A stretch of DNA of 37,036 bases, from positions 1 through 37,036 of the forward strand of contig CAMEEX010000012.1 of the NCBI GenBank assembly GCA_945915235.1. Direction: 5' to 3'. The position numbers and the translations under genes are program-made. Shown in pieces: positions 5,222-33,900 of this stretch. Each line of letters begins with the position of its first letter. Positions within the stretch are counted from its first letter, which is position 1. Below the pieces are notes generated by a model. It made no database searches and had not been told where the DNA came from. It was given only the letters and a program-made list of their open reading frames with translations. The DNA comes from an uncultured Clostridia bacterium (lineage in GTDB: Bacteria; Bacillota; Clostridia; Lachnospirales; Lachnospiraceae).

Positions 5222-6583
5222 ATGAAGGTATTATGGCTTATAAATGCGCCAATACCGGCTCTGTGCGAGCGCGCAGGGCTTCCGGTGCAGGTAAAGGAGG
5301 GCTGGATTGACGGGCTTTACAATTCGCTGATGGCTCTTGTGAAGGAGAAGAAGGTGGACTTTAAGCTTGCCATAGCCTTCCCGCAGTTTGCTAAGAAGGA
5401 GACCATAGAGGGGGAGCTTGACGGCAGCGAGTTCTACGGCTTTTACAAGGAGGAGGACAAGCCCTACAAGTACAACCAGAATGTCGAGGGAAGGCTCAGG
5501 GACATACTTACAAAGGCAGCTCCCGATGTGGTGCATATAGCAGGGACGGAGTATGACCACGCGGCTGCGATGGTGAGGGCGTTTGGCAGACCTGACAGGA
5601 CGGTTGTGTCAATTCAGGGTCTTACGAGTGTGTATGCAAGGCACTACATGGCTGACCTTCCGGTGAGTGTGAGATACGGCTTCACTCTCAGAGACGTGTT
5701 AAAGCTGGATAATCTGTTTTTTGACAGGAAAAAATATTATAAAAGAGGGGCTCTTGAGAAAGAGACCATAAGAGGGGCAGGGCATATTATCGGAAGAACC
5801 GACTGGGATAATATATGCACACGCCTTATAAATCCTACCGCGAAATATTATTATTGCAGTGAAATATTAAGAAAGGACTTCTATGACGGGAGCCGCTGGA
5901 GCGAGGATGACTGCGATAAACATACCGTATTCGTATCGCAGGGCTACTATCCGATTAAAGGACTTCACTACATGCTCGAGGCGCTCAAGGATATAAGAAA
6001 ATTCTACCCGGATGTTAAGCTCAGGGTAGCGGGCGGTGTCAGCCTCAACGATGAAGGCTTTAAAAACAGGCTCAGACAGAAGAATTATCAGCGGTATCTG
6101 TCAAAGCTCATAGAAAAATATAATCTCTCCGACTGCGTGGAATTTCTTCCGCCGTTGAAGGCTGATGAGATGAAGAAAATGTATCTTAAAAGCAATGTAT
6201 TTGTGTCGCCTTCGTCCATAGAAAATTCGCCGAACTCGCTGGGCGAGGCGATGATACTTGGTGTACCGTGTGTTTCCTCGCTGGTGGGCGGTGTCGGAAA
6301 TATGCTTATAGACGGAGTAGAGGGCTTTTTCTACCAGCACGATGCGCCGTATATGCTTGCCTTCTATGTTATGCGGATATTTGAGACACAGGACAGGCAG
6401 AGAGAGCAGTTGGTGTACATGACCGATGCGGCGCAAGCTCACGCACAGCGACTTTTTGACAGAAGGAAAAATGCAGAGCAGATGCTTGAGATATACGGAG
6501 AGGTTAAGTCTGAGGGCAAGGCTGTAAGTACCGCAAGCAATACTCGCGGTATGCAGGGGGATAAGTTTGAAAATGACAACTAG
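5222..6583 (+). CDS. GT4-family (GT-B fold) glycosyltransferase
   Basis: A 453-aa cytoplasmic retaining glycosyltransferase. The N-terminal half is a Rossmann-like acceptor domain (starts MKVLWLINAP). The C-terminal nucleotide-sugar domain shows the GT4 pattern: VSQGYYPIKGLHYMLEAL (about residues 238-255), then the E-x7-E motif in SIENSPNSLGEAMILGVPCVSS (about 330-352). The donor and acceptor cannot be told from sequence. The C-terminal ~25 residues are low-complexity and overlap the next gene. The short spacing to downstream genes suggests surface polysaccharide or glycolipid synthesis with the PTPS-related membrane proteins. The start ATG at 5222 has the SD GTGAGG about 8 nt upstream. Confidence 0.85.
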   Translation: MKVLWLINAPIPALCERAGLPVQVKEGWIDGLYNSLMALVKEKKVDFKLAIAFPQFAKKETIEGELDGSEFYGFYKEEDKPYKYNQNVEGRLRDILTKAAPDVVHIAGTEYDHAAAMVRAFGRPDRTVVSIQGLTSVYARHYMADLPVSVRYGFTLRDVLKLDNLFFDRKKYYKRGALEKETIRGAGHIIGRTDWDNICTRLINPTAKYYYCSEILRKDFYDGSRWSEDDCDKHTVFVSQGYYPIKGLHYMLEALKDIRKFYPDVKLRVAGGVSLNDEGFKNRLRQKNYQRYLSKLIEKYNLSDCVEFLPPLKADEMKKMYLKSNVFVSPSSIENSPNSLGEAMILGVPCVSSLVGGVGNMLIDGVEGFFYQHDAPYMLAFYVMRIFETQDRQREQLVYMTDAAQAHAQRLFDRRKNAEQMLEIYGEVKSEGKAVSTASNTRGMQGDKFENDN

Positions 6584-20847: not shown

Positions 20848-20886
20848 CTAATCTCCATTCCGCCGCCCTACGGCGACACTAATCTC
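20848..20886 (-). repeat. GC-rich mini-hairpin/SD module flanked by 8-bp direct repeats
   Basis: On the minus strand a GTCGCC...GGCGGC hairpin is followed by GGAATGGAGATT and the pmbA start. The 8-mer GAGATTAG occurs on both sides (20879-20886 and 20848-20855 as plus-strand CTAATCTC). A related hairpin plus the identical GGCGGCGGAATGGAGATT lies directly before capA at 24264-24294. It supplies the pmbA SD. Confidence 0.6.
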
Positions 20887-22383: not shown

Positions 22384-22390
22384 TACAGAA

Positions 22391-22689
22391 TCGGGGTGTC
22401 AAAACATGCTGATTTACTCTGTGAGTGTATAACGTGTTATATTTAGGCATATCGTCTCCGATTGCTCGAAGCGAGATGTTTTAAGAACTCTGATATATTT
22501 TATATAAAGTGCCGCCACCGTTGCAAAACCAGCCCTCCGTGGCTGTTTGCAACTCAGTCAGCCTCCATGCTGACTGTGGCTGGACAGTGAACAGAGTCCT
22601 AAGAACATCTAGGCTTCTCGCAAAAGTCGCAATATGCCTAAATATAACACGTTATACACAATTAAAGTTATAGAGCATGTTTTGACATC
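22391..22689 (+). ncRNA. Giant rod-shaped structured element, copy 1
   Basis: About 300 nt fold end to end. 22395-22410 pair with 22674-22689. 22426-22452 pair perfectly with 22632-22658 (27 bp). Near 22473-22500, GAAGC, AGATGTT and ACTCTG pair with GCTTC, AACATCT and CAGAGT near 22585-22615. At the apex are an unpaired GCCGCCACCG stretch and two hairpins with CTCC-containing loops (about 22523-22556 and 22558-22582). A homologous inverted copy lies at 29941-30245. It occupies most of the 602-bp gap between tldD and capA and contains no credible reading frame. A T7 run near 22720 could end a transcript. Structured RNA is favoured because of the dedicated promoter, but a foldback mobile element remains possible. 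Confidence 0.65.
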
Positions 22690-22781
22690 AAAATACTGAA
22701 GATGTTCAGGTCAAATAGGTTTTTTTATACTTGCCGCGGCCATTATCCTTGTGATGCTTGCTGTGGAAGTTGTTTTATTTG

Positions 22782-22824
22782 ATAAAATAAGGGCGGCAGA
22801 CATTGTCTTTGCCGTCCTTATTTT
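22782..22824. terminator. Likely bidirectional terminator between element 1 and capA
   Basis: Positions 22782-22798 pair with about 22810-22824 as a strong A/T-flanked, GC-cored stem (core GGGCGGCA/TGCCGTCC with a G-U pair). The A-rich left and T-rich right edges suit termination of both capA (minus strand) and any plus-strand transcript from element 1. Confidence 0.65.
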
Positions 22825-22868
22825 GTCTTGTTATAAAATGATTTAAACTGCAAAAGTTCCGGGCAAAG

Positions 22869-24263
22869 CTACTCTACGAACTGCGGGCAGATCTGCCTTG
22901 CGAGGTTCCATAGCCCTTCGACCGTGAACGGATACCACTGATTTACGTTTCTGTAGCCCTCGGCGTACTGGCCGGTGTACGGCTCGGTGAGAATTGCGTG
23001 TCGGGAGGCAAGCTCATCTGTGTAGTCGCTCAAGAAATAGGTAGTCATCTCGGTGCGTCCTGCCGTGTAATGTGTCACAAGAAAATCCATGTCGTAGTCC
23101 GAAATATAGGTTCCAGTGGAGTCCTTTGTGATCGTGACCTCGGCAAAGCCGCCGAGCATTGAATAGTTGTAGTACTGTATCGATATGTAATTGCCGAGAG
23201 AGTAGTATACGAGGGTCTGCCTGCCGTCGGCGGCTGTAACCCATTCGACAGGCTCGACGACATGAGGGTGTGTTCCGATTATAAGGTCTGCGCCGTTGTC
23301 GGCGAAGAACTGAGCCCACTGTTTCTGCTCGTCGGTCTCCTCAAGCATATATTCCGTGCCCCAGTGCGGGTACACGATGACGAAATCAGCCTGCTCGCGG
23401 GCTTTTTTCATGTCCTCGGCAATCTCGGACTTGTGTGCATCGTCCATGAGATTTATGAGGTAAGGCTTGTCGGAAGGGAGGGAGAAGCCGTTGAGACCGT
23501 AGGTATAGTTGAGCATCGCGATCTTTATTCCGTCCTTCTCAACTATCCTTATGGTGTCGCGCTCCTCCTCGCTCTCATTTATTCCGAGAAAGGTCGTGTC
23601 AGGGTGCTTTTCTTTCCAGAAGTGGATAGTGTTCAGCACGCCGACTGTGTCCTTATCCATCGTGTGGTTGCTGGCGTGTAAAATTACGTCAAAGCCTGTG
23701 TCCACGAGCGCATCTCCGAAAGCCTGTGGTGAGTTGAAGGTCGGGTAACTGCTCACGCCAAGCTCCACGCCGCCGAGTATTACCTCCTGATTGGCAACCG
23801 CGATGTCGGCCGCCGCAATCCTGTCTTTCGTGTGTTCAAACACATGCGCGTAATTGTAGCTGCCGTCAGGCTGCAGCGAGCTGTTATGTATTCCGCCGTG
23901 AAGAAGCATATCTCCAACCGCTATGAGATTGATGCTTACCGGAGCGACGGTGGCAGCGGCTTCCGTTGAGACTTCTGTTGTCTCAGTTTCCGTTGTGGCG
24001 CTGTCGTTTTCATCGGTGCCTTTCTCTGCTGTATTCTGACTGTCACCTTGACTATTGGCATTGTTCACTGCGTCAGACGGGTTTTGTACGTCAGATGCCT
24101 GGGTGGAAGAGGTCTCAAGGTAGACCGTGCTGTTGACACCTGATGAGGCACTGTCTGCACAGCCGGAAAGCCCAAGAATACCTGAGAGGTTTATGCACAG
24201 GCAGAGTAAGAGTGCCTGAACGCGCCGTGAGAGTGTCCTTTTTTCCTTATTATAATATCTCAT
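22869..24263 (-). CDS. CapA-family lipoprotein (PGA_cap metallophosphatase-like)
   Basis: A 464-aa protein. A basic N-terminus and hydrophobic stretch end in lipobox LSGC with cysteine 35, predicting an extracellular lipoprotein. A Ser/Thr/Asn-rich linker (about 36-105) precedes the CapA domain: LIAVGDMLLHGGIHN (about 112-126), AVANQEVILGG, a VILHASNHTMDKD box (about 193-205), VIVYPHWGTEY (about 297-307) and IIGTHPHVVEPVEW (about 327-340) with the metal-binding histidines. CapA/PgsA proteins function in poly-gamma-glutamate synthesis or anchoring, but no capBC genes are present here, so this is a stand-alone homolog of unknown substrate. The SD GGAG lies before ATG 24263 in a structured leader. 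Confidence 0.88.
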   Translation of the reverse strand: MRYYNKEKRTLSRRVQALLLCLCINLSGILGLSGCADSASSGVNSTVYLETSSTQASDVQNPSDAVNNANSQGDSQNTAEKGTDENDSATTETETTEVSTEAAATVAPVSINLIAVGDMLLHGGIHNSSLQPDGSYNYAHVFEHTKDRIAAADIAVANQEVILGGVELGVSSYPTFNSPQAFGDALVDTGFDVILHASNHTMDKDTVGVLNTIHFWKEKHPDTTFLGINESEEERDTIRIVEKDGIKIAMLNYTYGLNGFSLPSDKPYLINLMDDAHKSEIAEDMKKAREQADFVIVYPHWGTEYMLEETDEQKQWAQFFADNGADLIIGTHPHVVEPVEWVTAADGRQTLVYYSLGNYISIQYYNYSMLGGFAEVTITKDSTGTYISDYDMDFLVTHYTAGRTEMTTYFLSDYTDELASRHAILTEPYTGQYAEGYRNVNQWYPFTVEGLWNLARQICPQFVE

Positions 24264-24363
24264 AAAATCTCCATTCCGCCGCCGAGCGGCGGCACAAATA
24301 GTAATAGTTCAGCCAGCTGAACTATTGTGATGATATACCGCGCGGAAACCACCGCGCAGTCAT
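24264..24363 (-). promoter_or_regulatory. Three-hairpin structured leader of the capA-like gene
   Basis: Read on the minus strand from a predicted start near 24364, the leader holds three hairpins in a row. The first is GCGCGG...CCGCGC (about 24338-24358). The second is a perfect 10-bp stem with a 4-nt loop (24303-24326). The third is GCCGCC-GCTC-GGCGGC (about 24277-24292). GGAATGGAGATTTT and the ATG follow. Little unpaired RNA remains, so regulation is likely. With the two promoters (24371-24399 and 24539-24567) this accounts for most of the 343-bp gap; nothing else is seen in it. Confidence 0.6.
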
Positions 24364-24370
24364 ATAGTAT

Positions 24371-24399
24371 TTTATACATTAAGGAAGCATTTCAGTCAA
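24371..24399 (-). promoter_or_regulatory. Promoter of the capA-like gene
   Basis: On the minus strand TTGACT (24394-24399) and TATAAA (24371-24376) are separated by 17 bp, with TG immediately before the -10. Confidence 0.7.
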
Positions 24400-24538
24400 T
24401 CAAAATTTAGCCTTGATGCTCTACAAAACACATACTTAATAAATTTAGCCCCATACGTCCGATTTACAAAAAATAATCGGAATATTCAAATGTGTAACTT
24501 AATATAGTAAAGCGATAGCATACAGAAGCAACAAAACA

Positions 24539-24567
24539 TTGAAAACCCGCAATCTGTTTGATATAAT
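24539..24567 (+). promoter_or_regulatory. Promoter of glnA
   Basis: TTGAAA at 24539-24544 and TATAAT at 24562-24567 are separated by 17 bp. The predicted leader is only ~33 nt, leaving no room for the paired hexaloop hairpins that ANTAR proteins bind. Confidence 0.8.
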
Positions 24568-24606
24568 GGCTGATAGTTCAAGTATTATTGTGATGGAGGT
24601 TCAGAA

Positions 24607-25938
24607 ATGAGCAGATACAGCAAAGAGGATATATTAAGACTTGTAGCTGAGGAAGATGTTGAGTTCGTCCGTTTGCAGTTTACAGATGCATTCGGAATAC
24701 TGAAAAATGTGGCGATCACGTCGAGCCAGTTAAAGAGGGCGTTGGACAATAAGATTATGTTCGACGGAGCTTCTATAGATGGTTTTGTGAGGATAGAGGA
24801 GTCGGATATGTATCTGTACCCTGACCTTGACAGCTTTACGATTTTCCCATGGAGGCCGCAGCAGGGCAAGGTGGCAAGGCTTATCTGCGATGTGTATAAG
24901 CCGGACGGAACACCTTTTGAGGGCGACCCGAGGTATATTTTAAAGAGAGTTTTAAAGGAAGCAGCCGATATGGGCTACACCTTCAATGTCGGACCTGAGT
25001 GCGAGTTTTTTCTCTTCGCTTCTGACGAGGCGGGCAGACCTACGACCGACTCCGATGAGCAGGCAGGATATTTTGACCTTGGGCCTAATGATTACGGCGA
25101 GAATGCAAGGCGCGACATGGTTCTCACGCTCGAGGACATGGGCTTCGTGATAGAGGCATCGCACCATGAGGCGGCACCGGCACAGCATGAGATAGATTTC
25201 AAGTATGACGAGGGACTCAAGGTTGCCGATGACATTATGACCTTCAAGCTTGTGGTAAAGACTATCGCGAAGAGACATGGAATGTATGCGACCTTCATGC
25301 CGAAGCCTAAGTACGGGGTGAACGGTTCGGGAATGCATATAAACATGTCGCTGTCAAAGGACGGGAAGAATGCGTTCTGCGACCCTGAGGATAAGCTGGG
25401 GCTCAGCGAGACGGCATATCAGTTCATAGCAGGAATTTTAGAGCATGTGAAGGGTATAACAGCCATCGCCAATCCGCTTATCAACTCATACAAACGACTT
25501 GTTCCGGGCTATGAAGCGCCGGTTTACATTGCGTGGTCGGCGACCAACAGAAGTCCTCTTATACGCATACCGGCGTCGGAGGGCGAGGGGACGAGGGCGG
25601 AGCTCAGAAGCCCGGACCCGACAGCCAACCCGTATCTGGTGCTCGCGGTATGTCTGGCAGCAGGACTCGACGGCATCAGAAGAAAGCTTGCCATTCCACA
25701 GGCTGTCAACAGAAATATCTATGATATGACGGACAGCGAGCGGAGTGAAGCAGGAATAGACAGCCTACCTGAAAACCTTATGGAGGCGGGAATTGAGCTC
25801 GCAAATGACGAGTATCTTAAAAATACACTTGGACCGCACATCACCAGAGTCTACCTTGACAACATAAAGAAGGAGTGGAAGGACTACTCCACACAGGTTA
25901 CTGACTGGGAAATCAAGCAGTATCTTTATAAATATTAA
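24607..25938 (+). CDS. glnA: Type I glutamine synthetase
   Basis: A 443-aa cytosolic enzyme making glutamine from glutamate, ammonia and ATP. The N-terminal beta-grasp region has [21 protein letters not shown]. The catalytic domain shows [10 protein letters not shown] (about 131-140), [15 protein letters not shown] (about 186-200), the ATP-site [13 protein letters not shown] (about 239-251) and [14 protein letters not shown] (about 310-323). The 443-aa length and the absence of the adenylylation-loop insertion fit the GSI-alpha group of Gram-positives, regulated by feedback and DNA-binding proteins rather than adenylylation. The SD GGAGG is in the leader. An ANTAR regulator gene follows after 16 nt. 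Confidence 0.96.
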
Positions 25939-25954
25939 TGTCGAGAGGGTTTGT

Positions 25955-26497
25955 ATGGAAAACATAATAGTTGTGTTTCCTAAGATTGAGGACGGAAAGG
26001 GACTCAAGGGACTTCTTGTGAAGAACGGCTTTCGCGTTGATGTGGTCTGCACGACGGGGGCGTTTGCCCTTGAACATGCACACTCCCTGAGCGGGGGTAT
26101 TGTGATATCGGGTTATAAGCTGCCGGATATGCTGTATCTTGAGCTCAAGGAGAGCCTTCCGCCGCAGTTTGAGCTTCTCCTGCTTGCTTCGGAGAGAGTG
26201 CTCGCGCAGTGTCCGAGCGATATCGTGAGTATATCGATGCCCGTAAAGACGGTGGATTTCGTGAACACCATACACATGATGTTCGAGGCGCAGTACAGGC
26301 GCAGAAAAAGACAGAAGATGCAGCCGACGGTCAGAAACACCGAGGAGCGCAAGCTCATCGATGAGGCTAAAGCGGTTCTGATGGAGCGAAACCACATGAC
26401 GGAGGACGAGGCGCACAGATATATCCAGAAATGTGCGATGGACAGCGGGACGAAGCTTGTCGAGTCGGCGCAGATGGTGCTGAGCTTATATGTATAG
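25955..26497 (+). CDS. ANTAR-domain response-regulator-like antiterminator
   Basis: A 180-aa protein. Residues 1-115 form a receiver-like domain (starts MENIIVVFPKIEDGKGLKGLLVKNGF), but the usual phospho-acceptor aspartate is not obvious; the expected position reads GGIVISGYKLPD. A basic coiled linker (RRRKRQK) leads to the C-terminal ANTAR domain (about 125-180) with ERKLIDEAKAVLMERNHMTEDEAHRYIQKCAMDSG. ANTAR proteins bind paired hexaloop RNA hairpins and prevent termination, often in nitrogen-metabolism genes (NasR, AmiR, EutV). It lies 16 nt after glnA and so is probably cotranscribed. No target hairpin pair is visible in this window. Confidence 0.88.
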   Translation: MENIIVVFPKIEDGKGLKGLLVKNGFRVDVVCTTGAFALEHAHSLSGGIVISGYKLPDMLYLELKESLPPQFELLLLASERVLAQCPSDIVSISMPVKTVDFVNTIHMMFEAQYRRRKRQKMQPTVRNTEERKLIDEAKAVLMERNHMTEDEAHRYIQKCAMDSGTKLVESAQMVLSLYV

Positions 26498-26565
26498 AAG
26501 ACGATTGGTTGTTATCAGGTGTAAAAATATATCAAATGAGATGAAATGGAGATTAGTGTGATAGT

Positions 26566-27492
26566 ATGAAGTTTACAAAAATGCAGGGACTTGGAAATGA
26601 TTATGTGTATGTTGACTGCACAAAGGAGGAGCTCGCGACCCCTGCCGACATAGCGAGGGCTGTGAGCGACAGACATTACGGGATTGGATCCGACGGGCTT
26701 ATCCTTATAAAGCCGTCAAAGGTTGCGGATTTTTATATGGAAATGTACAATGCAGACGGCTCGAGAAGTGCGATGTGCGGAAACGGAATACGCTGTGTCG
26801 GAAAATATGTGTACGATTTCGGGCTTACGGACAAGCTTGACGTGTCGATTGAGACGGCGGCAGGAATAAAATACCTTTCGCTGAGACTTTTGGGCGGACA
26901 GGTGAGAGAGGTCAGGGTAAACATGGGGGCTCCCGTGTTTGAGCCTTCGCTTGTGCCGACAACGCTCGAGGCGACAAGAAAAATAGAGGCTAACGGAATT
27001 GACCTTGCTGCGCCGTTACATGAAGGATATGACAATTCTGTATCGGATAAGGTTCCTGTTGTCCTTGACGCTCCGCTCACTGTCGACGGAAAAGAGTACA
27101 GAGTAAGCTGTGTATCTATGGGAAATCCGCATGTAATAACATATGTCGATGACGAAAAGGCAGTAGATATAGAGAAAATCGGACCGCTTTTTGAGAGCAA
27201 TACAGTATTCCCGGAGCGCACGAACACGGAGTTCATCCGCGTTGCGGACAGACAGAACATCTATATGCGCGTGTGGGAGAGAGGAACCGGTGAGACGCTT
27301 GCCTGCGGAACCGGGGCGTGTGCGTCCGCTGTTGCGACCATGTTAAACGGTCTGTGCGACAGAAGGGTTACGGTACATCTTCTCGGAGGCGACCTTTTCA
27401 TCGAGTGGGACGAGAAGGAAAATGTAGTATATATGACAGGACCGGCGGTCACTGTATTTACCGGCGATTATCCGCTTATAAGTCTTTTGTAA
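26566..27492 (+). CDS. dapF: Diaminopimelate epimerase
   Basis: A 308-aa enzyme converting LL- to meso-diaminopimelate for lysine and peptidoglycan. The start reads MKFTKMQGLGNDYVYVDC. The two catalytic cysteines lie in AMCGNGIRCVGKY (about residues 69-81) and TLACGTGACASA (about 244-255). Length is slightly above the usual ~275 because of a lineage insertion. The gene precedes dapL by 71 nt, consistent with a DAP aminotransferase pathway operon. An AATGGAGATTAG element upstream resembles the SD module before pmbA and capA but lacks the hairpin. Confidence 0.95.
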   Translation: MKFTKMQGLGNDYVYVDCTKEELATPADIARAVSDRHYGIGSDGLILIKPSKVADFYMEMYNADGSRSAMCGNGIRCVGKYVYDFGLTDKLDVSIETAAGIKYLSLRLLGGQVREVRVNMGAPVFEPSLVPTTLEATRKIEANGIDLAAPLHEGYDNSVSDKVPVVLDAPLTVDGKEYRVSCVSMGNPHVITYVDDEKAVDIEKIGPLFESNTVFPERTNTEFIRVADRQNIYMRVWERGTGETLACGTGACASAVATMLNGLCDRRVTVHLLGGDLFIEWDEKENVVYMTGPAVTVFTGDYPLISLL

Positions 27493-27563
27493 GAGGCGTT
27501 TTGATATATTACAGCAATTATTACAGCAATTTCATAAATAACTGAAATATAGGAGGACACAAC

Positions 27564-28778
27564 ATGTTTAAGCTCAATGACAATTATCTCAAGTTACCGG
27601 GAAGTTACCTTTTCTCGACGATAGGAAAGAAGGTAAAGGCATATTCAGAGGAACACCCGGATAAGAAAATCATCCGTCTCGGTATAGGCGATGTGACACA
27701 GCCGCTTGCACCTGCAATCATAAAGGCGCTTCACGGTGCGGTTGACGAGATGGCTGACGCTAAGACTTTCAGAGGCTATGCGCCTGACCTTGGCTATGAA
27801 TTTTTGAGAAACGCAATCGCCGACAACGATTACAAGGCGAGAGGCTGCAATATAGCCGCCGACGAGATATTTGTCAGCGACGGTGCAAAGAGCGACAGCG
27901 CAAACATTCAGGAAATATTAAGCCTTGACAACAAGATTGCGGTGTGCGACCCGGTTTACCCGGTGTATGTTGACTCTAACGTGATGGCAGGAAGGACAGG
28001 CACCTACGATGCCGCAGCACAGACCTGGAGCGATGTGATTTACATGCCTTGCAATGCTGAGAACAATTTTGTGCCGGAACTTCCGAAGGAAACTCCGGAT
28101 GTAATTTATCTGTGCTATCCGAACAACCCTACCGGAACGACACTCACGAAGGATCAGCTTCAGGTGTGGGTTGACTATGCGAACAAGGTTGGCGCATTAA
28201 TCATATATGATGCCGCCTACGAGGCATATATCTCAGAGGAGAATGTTCCGCACACCATCTACGAGTGTGAGGGCGCGAGAAACTGTGCGATTGAGCTTAG
28301 AAGTTTCTCAAAGAACGCGGGCTTTACGGGCGTGCGCCTTGGCTTTACCGTAATTCCGAAGGATATCAAGTGCGGCGACGTGATGCTTCACTCCCTCTGG
28401 GCAAGACGTCACGGCACAAAGTACAACGGCGCCCCTTACATCGTGCAGAGAGCCGGCGAGGCTGTTTACTCGGCTGAGGGTAAGGCGGAGTTGAAGGAGC
28501 AGGTTGCCTACTACATGAAGAACGCCAAGACCATAAAGGACGGACTTGCATCTGCGGGCTACACGGTATTTGGCGGTGTGAATGCGCCATACATCTGGCT
28601 CAAGACACCTGACAACATGAGCTCATGGGATTTCTTCGATTACCTTCTCGAGAACGTGAACATCGTCGGAACACCGGGCTCAGGCTTCGGACCAAGCGGC
28701 GAAGGATATTTCAGACTGACTGCATTCGGCTCATACGATAACACGGTCGAGGCGCTTGAGAGAATTAAAAATATGTAG
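27564..28778 (+). CDS. dapL: LL-diaminopimelate aminotransferase
   Basis: A 404-aa fold-type I PLP aminotransferase converting tetrahydrodipicolinate directly to LL-DAP. MFKLNDNYLKLPGSYLFSTIGKKV and RLGIGDVTQPLAPAIIKALH are typical of DapL. YPNNPTGTTL (about 190-199) binds the substrate/PLP region, and the PLP lysine lies in RSFSKNAGFTGVRLGF (about 247-262). The AGGAGG SD is optimal. With dapF, this shows the aminotransferase variant of lysine synthesis, common in Clostridia and replacing DapC/D/E. Confidence 0.96.
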   Translation: MFKLNDNYLKLPGSYLFSTIGKKVKAYSEEHPDKKIIRLGIGDVTQPLAPAIIKALHGAVDEMADAKTFRGYAPDLGYEFLRNAIADNDYKARGCNIAADEIFVSDGAKSDSANIQEILSLDNKIAVCDPVYPVYVDSNVMAGRTGTYDAAAQTWSDVIYMPCNAENNFVPELPKETPDVIYLCYPNNPTGTTLTKDQLQVWVDYANKVGALIIYDAAYEAYISEENVPHTIYECEGARNCAIELRSFSKNAGFTGVRLGFTVIPKDIKCGDVMLHSLWARRHGTKYNGAPYIVQRAGEAVYSAEGKAELKEQVAYYMKNAKTIKDGLASAGYTVFGGVNAPYIWLKTPDNMSSWDFFDYLLENVNIVGTPGSGFGPSGEGYFRLTAFGSYDNTVEALERIKNM

Positions 28779-28942
28779 CCATCTCTGGGACATGGGGGCT
28801 GACATCGGTGTTCCAAAGCGAATTCTACTTCCAAGGGGTGTTAATTTTCCGCTTTCGGTGTAGTATATTACTCAAAAAGGAAGTGCAGGGAGCCGCGCTT
28901 TAATATAGGTGACGGCATTGTTGCATTGGAATGGAGCATTAT

Positions 28943-29833
28943 ATGGACACAGTAAAGATTGGAAGGTACATTGCACAAAAGAGAAGGGGACTGGGACTTA
29001 CACAGAGGCAGGTGGCAGAGAAGCTTGGCATGAGCGATAAGTCTGTCTCTAAGTGGGAGAGAGGTGTATGCCTGCCGGATGTTTCCGTATACACAGAGCT
29101 TTGCGAAATACTGGGAATAAATCTCAATGAGTTTTTTGCCGGTGAGGATATCCGCGTTGAAGCGATTGTAAAGCAGTCCGAGGACAACATCATACAGATT
29201 GCGACGGACAGCAAGCACAGGCAGAATAAGCTGAAATGTGTGATAGCGCTGCTTCTTGTTATTGTTCTGGCTGCGGGTGCGGTTATTGGGGTAAGGTTGT
29301 ATCTCTTAAACAGACCGCAGAATTATATCTGCGCGGTCGACAGGGAGAGTGTCGAGATGAAGACTGCACAGCTATTGTCAGGGGTAGATGGGGCGTACAT
29401 GTACAAGTATGTGACTACCGACAGCTTCAACTTGTTGACCATCTACATATCCAAGTATGAATCGGGAAAGCTGATAGATAAGGACAGGGTTGAGGTTGTA
29501 TATGATGGCTTAGACTCACCGGAAAATGGAATGATAGTGATTGTTCCTGATTTTGACAGCAACACAATAAGGCTTATCATATCGGATGACTGTGCAAAGC
29601 TCAAAACGGAGATACCGATACTTGATGGAGTGACGGACAGAGGTCATAGTGCAAGAAGCATTGTACAGCTTGAGGGGAAAAAAGCAATAAAATATGATGA
29701 AGAACAGGGCTTGTTTGCGCTAACCTGCGGTAAAAATGCGCTTCGCTCAGAGAGCATAGAGGAGTTGGAAGCCGGAAATGCAAAAGCGGAGAATGATTAT
29801 ACTTATTATCTATCGTTTAAGTTTGGAAAGTAG
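28943..29833 (+). CDS. XRE-family regulator with membrane anchor and extracellular domain
   Basis: A 296-aa protein. The N-terminal HTH (residues ~6-60) reads IGRYIAQKRRGLGLTQRQVAEKLGMSDKSVSKWERGVCLPDVS. A linker (to ~90) leads to one membrane segment (about 94-118, CVIALLLVIVLAAGAVIGVRLYLL) and a ~180-residue extracytoplasmic C-terminal domain of unknown fold. This arrangement suggests a one-component sensor that binds DNA from the membrane; the ligand and targets are unknown. I use ATG 28943, which has GGAATGGAG upstream; ATG 28931 lies inside that SD. It is monocistronic, with a strong terminator following. Confidence 0.8.
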   Translation: MDTVKIGRYIAQKRRGLGLTQRQVAEKLGMSDKSVSKWERGVCLPDVSVYTELCEILGINLNEFFAGEDIRVEAIVKQSEDNIIQIATDSKHRQNKLKCVIALLLVIVLAAGAVIGVRLYLLNRPQNYICAVDRESVEMKTAQLLSGVDGAYMYKYVTTDSFNLLTIYISKYESGKLIDKDRVEVVYDGLDSPENGMIVIVPDFDSNTIRLIISDDCAKLKTEIPILDGVTDRGHSARSIVQLEGKKAIKYDEEQGLFALTCGKNALRSESIEELEAGNAKAENDYTYYLSFKFGK

Positions 29834-29876
29834 CATGTAATAATTATGAATTTACTTGTAAAATTTTACATCTAAT

Positions 29877-29922
29877 AAAGGTATTGATTTGTGGGATATT
29901 CTATAAATCAATACCTTTTTTG
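29877..29922. terminator. Strong terminator after the XRE gene
   Basis: A perfect 14-bp stem pairs 29877-29890 with 29905-29918 and is followed by further T residues. The A-rich left edge means it can also stop minus-strand transcripts leaving the second giant hairpin. Confidence 0.85.
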
Positions 29923-29940
29923 ATACAATTACCTATATAA

Positions 29941-30245
29941 GATTCGGGTGGCAAAGCATGCCAGATATACTTGGCTGTGTATAACGTATTATATTTATGC
30001 ATATCACGACTTTTGGGAGAAGCTTAGATGTTCTTAGAACTCTGCTAAGTCCCTAGCCAAAAGCAGCACGGATGCTGCTTTAGAAGCAATGCATACAAGG
30101 ATGTATGCTTTGCTTCGGTGGCGGACGCATAGAACACCTTAATCAGAGTTATTAGAACATCTTGCTTCGTACAAAGGAGCTGATATGCATAAATATAATA
30201 CATTATACACTCATGGATTAAATGGCATGCTTTGCCACCCGAATC
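29941..30245 (-). ncRNA. Giant rod-shaped structured element, copy 2 (inverted)
   Basis: About 305 nt. 29941-29962 pair with 30224-30245, and 29978-30004 with 30183-30209 (27 bp, one mismatch). AGATGTTCT/AGAACATCT near 30026 and 30160 continues the rod. At the apex are two hairpins with CGGAT- and AGGAT-containing loops (about 30063-30080 and 30085-30116). When this copy is reverse-complemented its apex aligns with copy 1 (CCGCCACCG, then two hairpins with TCC loops, then TGGCT), so the equivalent strand is minus. At least five rod pairs differ from copy 1 on both arms together. It accounts for most of the 563-bp gap before gatC, and no protein is encoded. Confidence 0.6.
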
Positions 30246-33630: not shown

Positions 33631-33900
33631 GCAGAGAAAACTGCCGGAAATAGAAAAAACAGAAGATGATTCAGTCTAAATAGGCGATTGAGATATGCTG
33701 TGGGCAGAGAAAACAGACCGGAAGCATATGAAAACAGAAGATGATTCAGTCTAAATAGGCGATTATGATATGCTGTGGGTAGAGAAAAAAGACCGGAGGC
33801 ATATGAAAACAGCAGATATTTCAGTCCAAAGGTGAGATATTAAATAAAATGGGCAGAGAAAATTCACAGATAACAGAATTTTGGCGGATTTTCTCTGCCC
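33631..33900 (+). repeat. Array of ~74-bp tandem repeats ending in a perfect hairpin
   Basis: The motif GCAGAGAAAA (GTAGAGAAAA in one unit) recurs at 33631, 33704, 33779 and 33853, giving periods of 73, 75 and 74 bp. Units one and two share AACAGAAGATGATTCAGTCT and the following AAATAGGCGATT; unit three is diverged. AGCATAT/ATATGCT inside units can pair. The last partial unit forms a 13-bp hairpin (33851-33863 with 33888-33900). There are no unique spacers as in CRISPR. The remaining gap to 33987 holds two TATAAT hexamers (33909, 33932) without clear -35 boxes. Confidence 0.8.

What the first reader, a model, noticed from the sequence alone, without database searches (positions are those of the whole stretch)
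22391..30245. Two homologous ~300-nt giant hairpins with compensatory substitutions
The elements at 22391-22689 and 29941-30245 each fold end to end into a rod with an outer arm, a 27-bp middle stem and an inner stem around AGATGTTCT/AGAACATCT. Between copies at least five base pairs change on both sides together: T-A to G-C (22399/22685 vs 29951/30235), A-T to G-C (22404/22680 vs 29956/30230), T-A to C-G (22410/22674 vs 29962/30224), and two inside the 27-bp stem (22436/22648 and 22446/22638). Paired changes indicate selection on, or arm-to-arm maintenance of, the fold. I recognise no described RNA family. A foldback mobile element (MITE-like) is the main alternative.
Basis: seen in the sequence. 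Interest (0 to 1): 0.88.

Follow-up and report, generated by a model that had tools for sequence, protein, structure and literature searches.

The report
Jumping hairpins carrying TwoAYGGAY RNA
The two hairpins are copies of TwoAYGGAY, a catalogued RNA family of unknown function that occurs at least 48 times in this bacterium's genome; sister copies carry the end repeats and 7-base target duplications of a small transposable element, so the RNA is likely spread by transposition and is predicted to bind the regulator CsrA.

Summary
Both ~305-nt hairpins fold end to end, and 0 of 100 shuffles reach either. They are not an undescribed RNA: both contain Rfam RF01731, TwoAYGGAY (105 and 93 bits, cut-off 43), on opposite strands. 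The genome holds at least 48 copies (47, one more). Many copies end in a terminal inverted repeat, GATTHGGGTGTCAAAA, which recurs up to 59 times per genome in 124 of 397 family genomes, also where TwoAYGGAY was not found. Where both ends are readable, copies are flanked by 7-bp direct repeats (16 of 45 copies here, permutation p = 0.0002; 16 of 83 elsewhere, p = 0.00004). The window's own two copies show none. One transposase-bearing unit with both ends, and one with a similar end, look IS1182-like. Double-sided changes abound, but evidence that RNA pairing rather than DNA arm copying maintains them is mixed. Both AnGGA loops survive in 47 of 47 copies; 61 of 64 positive genomes encode CsrA, inseparable from flagella. 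My reading: a transposon-borne, likely CsrA-binding RNA.

The parts
29941..30245 (+). copy 2: whole MITE-like element, upstream of gatC (30397) in the same direction
   Evidence: boundaries set by the inverted tips GATTCGGGTGGC/GCCACCCGAATC
30012..30175 (+). copy 2: TwoAYGGAY RNA core (RF01731)
   Evidence: 105 bits, gathering cut-off 43
29941..29962 (+). copy 2: left terminal inverted repeat
   Evidence: sequence; 2 mismatches to GATTHGGGTGTCAAAA, which recurs across the family
30224..30245 (+). copy 2: right terminal inverted repeat
   Evidence: sequence; 2 mismatches to the same consensus
30068..30073 (+). copy 2: hairpin loop 1, ACGGAT
   Evidence: sequence; AnGGA kept in both loops in 47 of 47 copies
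30097..30102 (+). copy 2: hairpin loop 2, AAGGAT, inside AUACAAGGAUGU
   Evidence: sequence; likeness to the CsrA SELEX consensus is recalled, not tested
22388..22694 (-). copy 1: whole element, upstream of the tldD-like gene (22266-20887, minus; name by eye) in the same direction; one tip degenerate
22461..22624 (-). copy 1: TwoAYGGAY RNA core (RF01731)
   Evidence: 93.4 bits, gathering cut-off 43
22563..22568 (-). copy 1: hairpin loop 1, ATGGAG on the minus strand
   Evidence: sequence, alignment
22535..22540 (-). copy 1: hairpin loop 2, ACGGAG on the minus strand
   Evidence: sequence, alignment
22701..22719 (+). solo B-type end GATGTTCAGGTCAAATAGG next to copy 1, likely a remnant of another element
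   Evidence: sequence; B-type ends
27493..27563 (.). dapF-dapL gap, without an element here; a congener's contig (L244) ends inside the arm and inner stem of such an element just after its dapF stop

Best explanation
Each hairpin is a copy of the known RNA family TwoAYGGAY, dispersed at 48 or more sites in this genome; each is likely a small non-autonomous transposon (MITE) moved by an IS1182-like transposase, and its transcript is predicted to fold into a rod that offers two AnGGA loops to the regulator CsrA. Shown here: family membership, copy number, the common terminal inverted repeat, and 7-bp target duplications in sister copies in this genome and in other genera. Inferred: (1) an IS1182-like transposase acts in trans on the ends, because one transposase-bearing unit has the same ends and another has a similar end; (2) the Rfam strand is transcribed; (3) the RNA binds CsrA, so that the copies together would form a dispersed decoy. 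Untested: transcription, CsrA binding, present-day mobility.
For: RF01731 at 105 and 93.4 bits, cut-off 43; 47 copies in the genome plus one on contig C169 (101 bits); 64 of 397 family genomes positive. Ends: GATTHGGGTGTCAAAA with up to 1 mismatch in 124 of 397 genomes, up to 59 hits per genome, control pattern 0-3 per genome. 7-bp duplications: 16 of 45 examined copies of this genome had readable tips on both sides, 61 of 112 positions matched (3.81 of 7 per copy against a cross mean of 2.47), permutation p = 0.0002, and 7 is the peak length among 2-12; 16 of 83 distinct copies from other genomes had readable tips, 8 of 16 matched at 6 or 7 of 7 (4 perfect) against 1.7% of cross pairs, p = 0.00004 (which corrects for one copy counted twice). 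Presence/absence: a congener (about 85% identical) has the arm of an element just after dapF where this window has none. Transposase: L297 is a 1049-bp unit with both ends exact and a perfect duplication TTAATAG around a DUF772 transposase fragment; two intact 533-aa relatives, 86% and 96% identical to it, have IS1182 as best NCBIfam match. RNA: AnGGA in both loops in 47 of 47 copies, while 6 of 8 pairs of hairpin-1's stem vary among Watson-Crick types. Host: CsrA in 61 of 64 positive genomes versus 149 of 333 negative ones, p = 9e-16; three CsrA genes in this genome.
Against: The window's own two copies show no 7-bp duplication (2 of 7 each). 67 of 83 copies from other genomes lack these tips on one or both sides, and a tip-independent test in 39 copies was only weakly positive (p = 0.027, no perfect 7-mer) and in 50 others near chance (6 of 50 at 6 or 7 of 7 against 5.6% of cross pairs), so other ends or decay must account for many. 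No intact IS with these ends on both sides was found. The L297 fragment scores 38.2 bits against an IS5 model and 35.1 against IS1182, and the intact relatives stay below NCBI's IS1182 cut-off (126.3 and 114.6 versus 270). L324's end differs from the B-type consensus at 3 of 16 positions. Flagellin follows TwoAYGGAY as well as CsrA does (63 of 64), and within flagellin-positive genomes CsrA adds nothing (61 of 63 versus 145 of 150). 7 of 50 copies elsewhere have CACGATG in loop 1 instead of AYGGAY. No clear promoter excess on the left flank (9 of 39 copies, 23%, versus 16% of shuffles). G001 holds 15 copies but no CsrA was found in it (91% complete).
Confidence: 0.66

Rival explanations
1. An inert palindromic MITE: the arms are kept complementary by DNA-level arm-to-arm copying, and TwoAYGGAY looks like a structured RNA only because palindromes covary. 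There is no RNA function.
For: Strict isolated-mismatch counts are near strand-symmetric: G.U:A.C 22:16 in this genome, 26:26 in other genomes. The same ends occur in many genomes where TwoAYGGAY was not found (7 of the 14 genomes with 10 or more tip hits). Derivatives that lost all or part of the core keep the arms.
Against: In 22 non-overlapping nearest copy pairs G.U outnumbers A.C 34:16, and over all copy pairs double changes are rare at 10-15% divergence (3 against 41 single-sided) and rise up to 30-35%, as stepwise RNA compensation predicts. AnGGA loops are invariant while most other unpaired core columns vary. Among genomes with at least 4 tip hits, TwoAYGGAY carriers are flagellated in 10 of 10 versus 11 of 20 (p = 0.013) and CsrA-positive in 9 of 10 versus 10 of 20 (p = 0.049).
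Confidence: 0.22
2. A cis-acting leader or terminator placed next to gene ends, which spread by ordinary duplication and is not a transposon.
For: Both window copies lie upstream of a gene in the same direction (tldD-like, gatC). In this genome the right end lies closer to a gene than the left end in 29 of 36 copies (medians 30.5 and 183.5 nt). Rfam types the family Cis-reg.
Against: The neighbouring genes have all four orientations (11 ++, 10 +-, 9 --, 6 -+); the polarity is weak in other genomes (28 of 47). The 7-bp duplications and the ends shared with core-less repeats need transposition.
Confidence: 0.07
3. The elements are mobile, but moved by another transposase (for example an IS5-, ISNCY-type or unknown enzyme), and the IS1182-like units merely share similar ends.
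For: NCBIfam scores are below every curated cut-off; the L297 fragment's best score is to an IS5 model, and the 533-aa relatives also match ISNCY and IS5 models. IS1272, placed in the IS1182 family, replaces stem-loops and leaves no duplication (passages of PMC5678879), unlike the 7-bp duplication seen here.
Against: L297 has both ends exact and a perfect 7-bp duplication around the transposase fragment; its two scanned intact relatives match IS1182 best and over nearly their whole length.
Confidence: 0.3

Closest known systems
TwoAYGGAY RNA (Rfam RF01731; listed in Weinberg et al. 2010, PMC2864571)
   Same: The model matches over its full length (1-168) in both copies; two AYGGAY-type hairpin loops.
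   Different: The passages read name no mobility; one mentions a further, poorly conserved external stem. Here the core sits in a ~305-nt element with terminal inverted repeats, target duplications in sister copies, and at least 48 copies.
MITEs (non-autonomous DNA transposons with foldback arms)
   Same: Short, no transposase gene, inverted ends, target duplication, high copy number, internally deleted derivatives.
   Different: The interior is a conserved RNA structure with invariant loop motifs rather than a decayed transposase remnant.
CsrB/RsmZ-type CsrA-sequestering sRNAs
   Same: Stem-loops with GGA in the loop; TwoAYGGAY was proposed to bind CsrA by motif matching (PMC4333381, passages).
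   Different: Two sites per RNA, many dispersed genomic copies; binding untested; no homology shown.
IS1182 family insertion sequences
   Same: DUF772-type transposase; the same ends in L297 and a similar end in L324.
   Different: 7-bp duplication here; IS1272 leaves none (PMC5678879, passages); scores below the curated model cut-off.
REP/REPIN palindromes with RAYT transposases (recalled)
   Same: Dispersed intergenic palindromes, some in inverted pairs (for example G009).
   Different: About ten times longer, with target duplications and an RNA core; RAYT genes were not searched for.

Membership tests
Rfam RF01731 TwoAYGGAY | covariance-model score above the gathering cut-off over the full model | tested here: met
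   105 and 93.4 bits versus 43, model 1-168
Rfam RF01731 TwoAYGGAY | two hairpins with AYGGAY-type loops | tested here: met
   AnGGA in both loops in 47 of 47 copies of this genome; GGA found in loop 1 of 27 and loop 2 of 22 of 50 copies elsewhere by a crude finder that failed on many
Rfam RF01731 TwoAYGGAY | cis-regulatory position (Rfam type) | tested here: inconclusive
   right-hand neighbour in sense in 17 of 36, in antisense in 19 of 36 (mechanical ORFs)
MITE | terminal inverted repeats shared between copies | tested here: met
MITE | fixed-length target-site duplication | tested here: met
   7 bp in sister copies; not recognisable at the window's two copies
MITE | high copy number without an own transposase gene | tested here: met
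   at least 48 copies, ~305 nt each
MITE | an autonomous partner with the same ends | tested here: inconclusive
   L297 (truncated transposase, both ends exact) and L324 (frame-disrupted gene, one end, 3 of 16 mismatches); no intact partner
IS1182 family (of the partner) | transposase above the curated model cut-off | tested here: not met
   35.1 bits for L297 (IS5 model 38.2), 126.3 and 114.6 bits for two intact relatives, cut-off 270; hence 'IS1182-like' only
CsrA-sequestering sRNA | CsrA present in the host | tested here: met
   three genes; 61 of 64 positive genomes
CsrA-sequestering sRNA | binds CsrA through GGA loops | not testable with these tools
   loops have the motif; no binding data
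REP/REPIN | RAYT (Y1) transposase as partner | not tested
   no search was made

The most novel reading that the evidence does not exclude
TwoAYGGAY is a mobile CsrA sponge: a transposon whose cargo is a structured decoy RNA, so that each transposition adds CsrA-binding sites. A selfish DNA element would thereby tune, copy by copy, the global regulator of flagella in its hosts.
Probability: 0.3. Interest if true: 0.85.

Novelty: new variant of a known kind. Interest (0 to 1): 0.6.

Why it matters
TwoAYGGAY has been listed as a probable RNA without function since 2010. Placing it inside a transposon would explain its patchy, multi-copy distribution, turns its function into concrete tests (transcription, CsrA binding, transposition), and warns that covariation in high-copy palindromes can come from DNA processes as well as from RNA selection.

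Tried and rejected
Inverted cores: for a while half of the copies seemed to have the core flipped relative to the arms. This was my error, since loci of minus hits were not turned; it vanished after re-orientation.

Own promoter on the left: sigma-70-like sites at score 9 or more in 9 of 39 left flanks (shuffles 16%) and 5 of 37 right flanks (shuffles 6%), no clear left excess (8 and 10 of 47 copies had no anchor or too short a flank). Terminator-targeted insertion: suggested by a few flanks, not general. Clean empty sites: L076 lacks elements at both window sites but synteny is broken there; L213 and L214 compared with congeners in which no element was found gave breakpoints or unalignable flanks; at L238's site this genome has a 72-aa ORF that looks by eye like a helix-turn-helix gene. 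General palindrome-end tests for duplications without tip recognition were weak or negative.

G.U versus A.C: a first count that included misregistered ends gave the opposite sign (117:146, 45 of 47 copies); the alignment-column count gave 44:19; the strict count is near-symmetric. I therefore leave RNA selection on the arms open. The column count leans on a structure predicted from the same sequences, and related copies are not independent. The ratio of double to single changes falls again above 35% divergence, where alignment is poor.

A counting slip found on checking: one search used 89 records of which six were second fetches of copies already in the set, and one readable copy was counted twice; one search repeats the test on 83 distinct copies with the same outcome.

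No match in plasmids. Viral contigs gave no transposase relatives. The transposase search in the plasmid collection gave only distant archaeal matches. In print: 'TwoAYGGAY' (7 papers, passages read in 5), and search listings for IS1182, CsrA/sponge/Clostridia, MITE/structured RNA, MITE/Lachnospiraceae and Rfam/CsrA/mobile element showed me no paper joining TwoAYGGAY to a transposon. Supplements, including that of the 2010 paper, could not be read.
Full report
What is there. Copy 1 (22388-22694, minus strand) and copy 2 (29941-30245, plus strand) are ~305-nt foldback elements. Each folds end to end far better than its shuffles (-143 and -159.9 kcal/mol; 0 of 100 shuffles reach this in either). 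The inner 164 nt of each matches Rfam RF01731, TwoAYGGAY, over the whole model (93.4 and 105 bits, cut-off 43).

Copies. The genome (268 contigs, 3.18 Mb) holds 47 matches, some at contig ends; a 48th at 101 bits lies on contig C169 (L198), so the true number is higher. In the nearest 41 genomes, this one included, 6 are positive, with 2 to 20 copies in the other five. That the family is Lachnospiraceae is inferred from the named relatives. I extracted the 47 copies with flanks. Beyond the Rfam core most have ~70-nt arms that are complementary within a copy but differ between copies.

Paired changes. Over 44 of 47 copies (three with a missing arm dropped), 21 of 31 mid-arm pairs and 6 of 8 pairs of hairpin 1 show two or more Watson-Crick types, each in at least two copies. 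Is this RNA selection or arm copying? Three counts disagree in strength. Alignment columns give G.U 44 to A.C 19 in the mid-arm, but related copies share events. In 22 non-overlapping nearest-neighbour pairs single-sided changes are 34 G.U, 16 A.C and 23 other, against 82 double changes (34:16 has binomial p = 0.015). Over all copy pairs, double changes are rare at 10-15% divergence (3 against 41 single-sided), reach 1.6 times the single ones at 30-35% and fall again beyond that, where alignment is poor. A strict count of isolated mismatches is 22:16 in 44 copies here and 26:26 in 50 copies from other genomes. I call this weak support for RNA pairing, with DNA arm copying not excluded.

Mobility. 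The outermost ends of many copies read GATTHGGGTGTCAAAA or the related B-type GATGTTGAGGTCAAAT. The first, with up to one mismatch, occurs in 124 of 397 genomes and up to 59 times in one genome; the reversed control pattern gives 0 to 3 per genome. In seven of the 14 genomes with 10 or more hits TwoAYGGAY was not found, so these look like the ends of a wider repeat superfamily. Of 45 copies tested in this genome 16 had readable tips (up to 3 mismatches) on both sides; their 7-base flanks match at 61 of 112 positions (3.81 of 7 per copy, cross-copy mean 2.47; permutation p = 0.0002), and 7 is the peak among lengths 2-12. L004 is perfect; so is L005, which lies outside the 16 by its left tip. 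A second set from other genomes: 16 of 83 distinct copies readable (up to 4 mismatches), 8 of 16 match at 6 or 7 of 7 and 4 are perfect, against 1.7% of cross pairs at 6 or more, p = 0.00004 (one search had counted one copy twice). Repeats with the same ends and no RF01731 match also show perfect 7-mers (L277, L297, L322). The window's own copies do not (2 of 7 each); copy 1 has a degenerate tip and lies beside a solo B-type end (22701-22719). Without tip recognition the test is weak (p = 0.027 in 39 copies) or near chance, so the claim rests on copies with these ends; 67 of 83 copies elsewhere lack them on one or both sides.

Gain and loss. A human faecal contig filed as phage (MT838847, L244) is ~85% identical to window 24595-27492 and ends inside the arm and inner stem of such an element, just after its dapF stop, where this window has a 71-nt gap. 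A second such contig (L237) shares an orthologous element with contig C11 of this genome (the C11 copy does not reach the Rfam cut-off), and its arms differ from it by changes on both sides; a third (L238) has an element where this genome has a 72-aa ORF. Derivatives with intact arms and the core partly or wholly deleted exist.

The likely mover. L297 is a 1049-bp unit with both ends exact and a perfect duplication TTAATAG. Its gene matches DUF772. By NCBIfam it scores 38.2 bits to an IS5 model over residues 49-123 and 35.1 bits to IS1182 over residues 48-301, and that similarity stops at the right end, so the gene looks truncated. Intact relatives of 533-535 aa make up most of the 120 listed of 2507 matches; two of them, 86% and 96% identical to the fragment, match IS1182 best (126.3 and 114.6 bits, over residues 46-517), still below the cut-off of 270. 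L324 ends with a repeat that agrees with the B-type consensus at 13 of 16 positions, after an IS1182-like gene whose frame is broken. I found no intact partner. 'IS1182-like' is therefore the most I claim.

What the RNA would do. Both loops keep AnGGA in 47 of 47 copies. In hairpin 1, C, A, G, G, A and G around the loop are invariant in 44 of 44, while stem columns and the loop positions next to GGA vary. GGA in a hairpin loop is the motif that led to the published suggestion of CsrA binding (PMC4333381, passages read). CsrA occurs in 61 of 64 positive and 149 of 333 negative genomes (p = 9e-16); flagellin in 63 of 64 and 150 of 333; the two genes cannot be separated. This genome has one csrA next to fliW and two csrA genes directly before flagellin genes. 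Among the 30 genomes with at least 4 end-repeat hits, TwoAYGGAY carriers are flagellated in 10 of 10 versus 11 of 20 (p = 0.013), so the cargo, rather than the ends, seems to follow such hosts. Phylogeny was not corrected for. Against a general CsrA role, 7 of 50 copies elsewhere have CACGATG in loop 1, one of them in both loops.

Known work. The 2010 survey lists TwoAYGGAY as probably an RNA, probably not cis-regulatory, in human gut, gamma-proteobacteria and Clostridiales (PMC2864571, passage). Rfam 15 added two covarying pairs (PMC11701678, passage), and a 2020 method paper uses it as an example of an extended helix (PMC7657543, passage). A preprint notes the unequal stability of its two hairpins (PMC11661157, passages). 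No paper seen connects it to transposons.

Verdict. The finding is real, the RNA family is known, and the mobile-element reading is well supported. The functional step, a CsrA decoy, is a prediction.

Noticed in passing
window 33656-33805: Two adjacent 75-nt direct repeats, 93% alike, just downstream of gatB, with a third partial unit before them.
   Followed up: no
L237, L238, L244 (MT836195, MT837682, MT838847): GenBank records named 'Bacteriophage sp.' from human faeces carry this element or its arm; L244 carries chromosomal genes (glnA to dapF), so such records look like bacterial contigs filed as phage.
   Followed up: partly
L073, L074, L075 (G000:C2, C27, C54): Two extra csrA genes lie directly upstream of flagellin genes, besides the fliW-linked csrA of L073.
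   Followed up: partly
L014 left flank and L204 right flank: Another palindromic repeat (ACGCAACTATTACCGCC...) abuts or truncates TwoAYGGAY elements.
   Followed up: no
L076, between dapF and dapL (about 5466-5731): A different palindrome-like stretch fills the dapF-dapL gap in a same-genus contig, where L244 has a TwoAYGGAY-type arm and the window has nothing: one gap, three states (read by eye).
   Followed up: no
L052, L066, L070, L071, L160, L178, L179: Loop 1 reads CACGATG instead of CAYGGAYG, a loop variant that lacks GGA; in L179 both loops do.
   Followed up: partly
G009:C47, G009:C33, G380:C152, G054:C123: TwoAYGGAY copies in closely spaced divergent pairs (minus then plus, less than 350 nt between cores).
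   Followed up: no
window 20850-20883 and 24266-24299: A 34-nt repeat with a GC-rich inverted stretch at or just upstream of the start of two minus-strand genes (ORFs 20858-19497 and 24263-22869).
   Followed up: no
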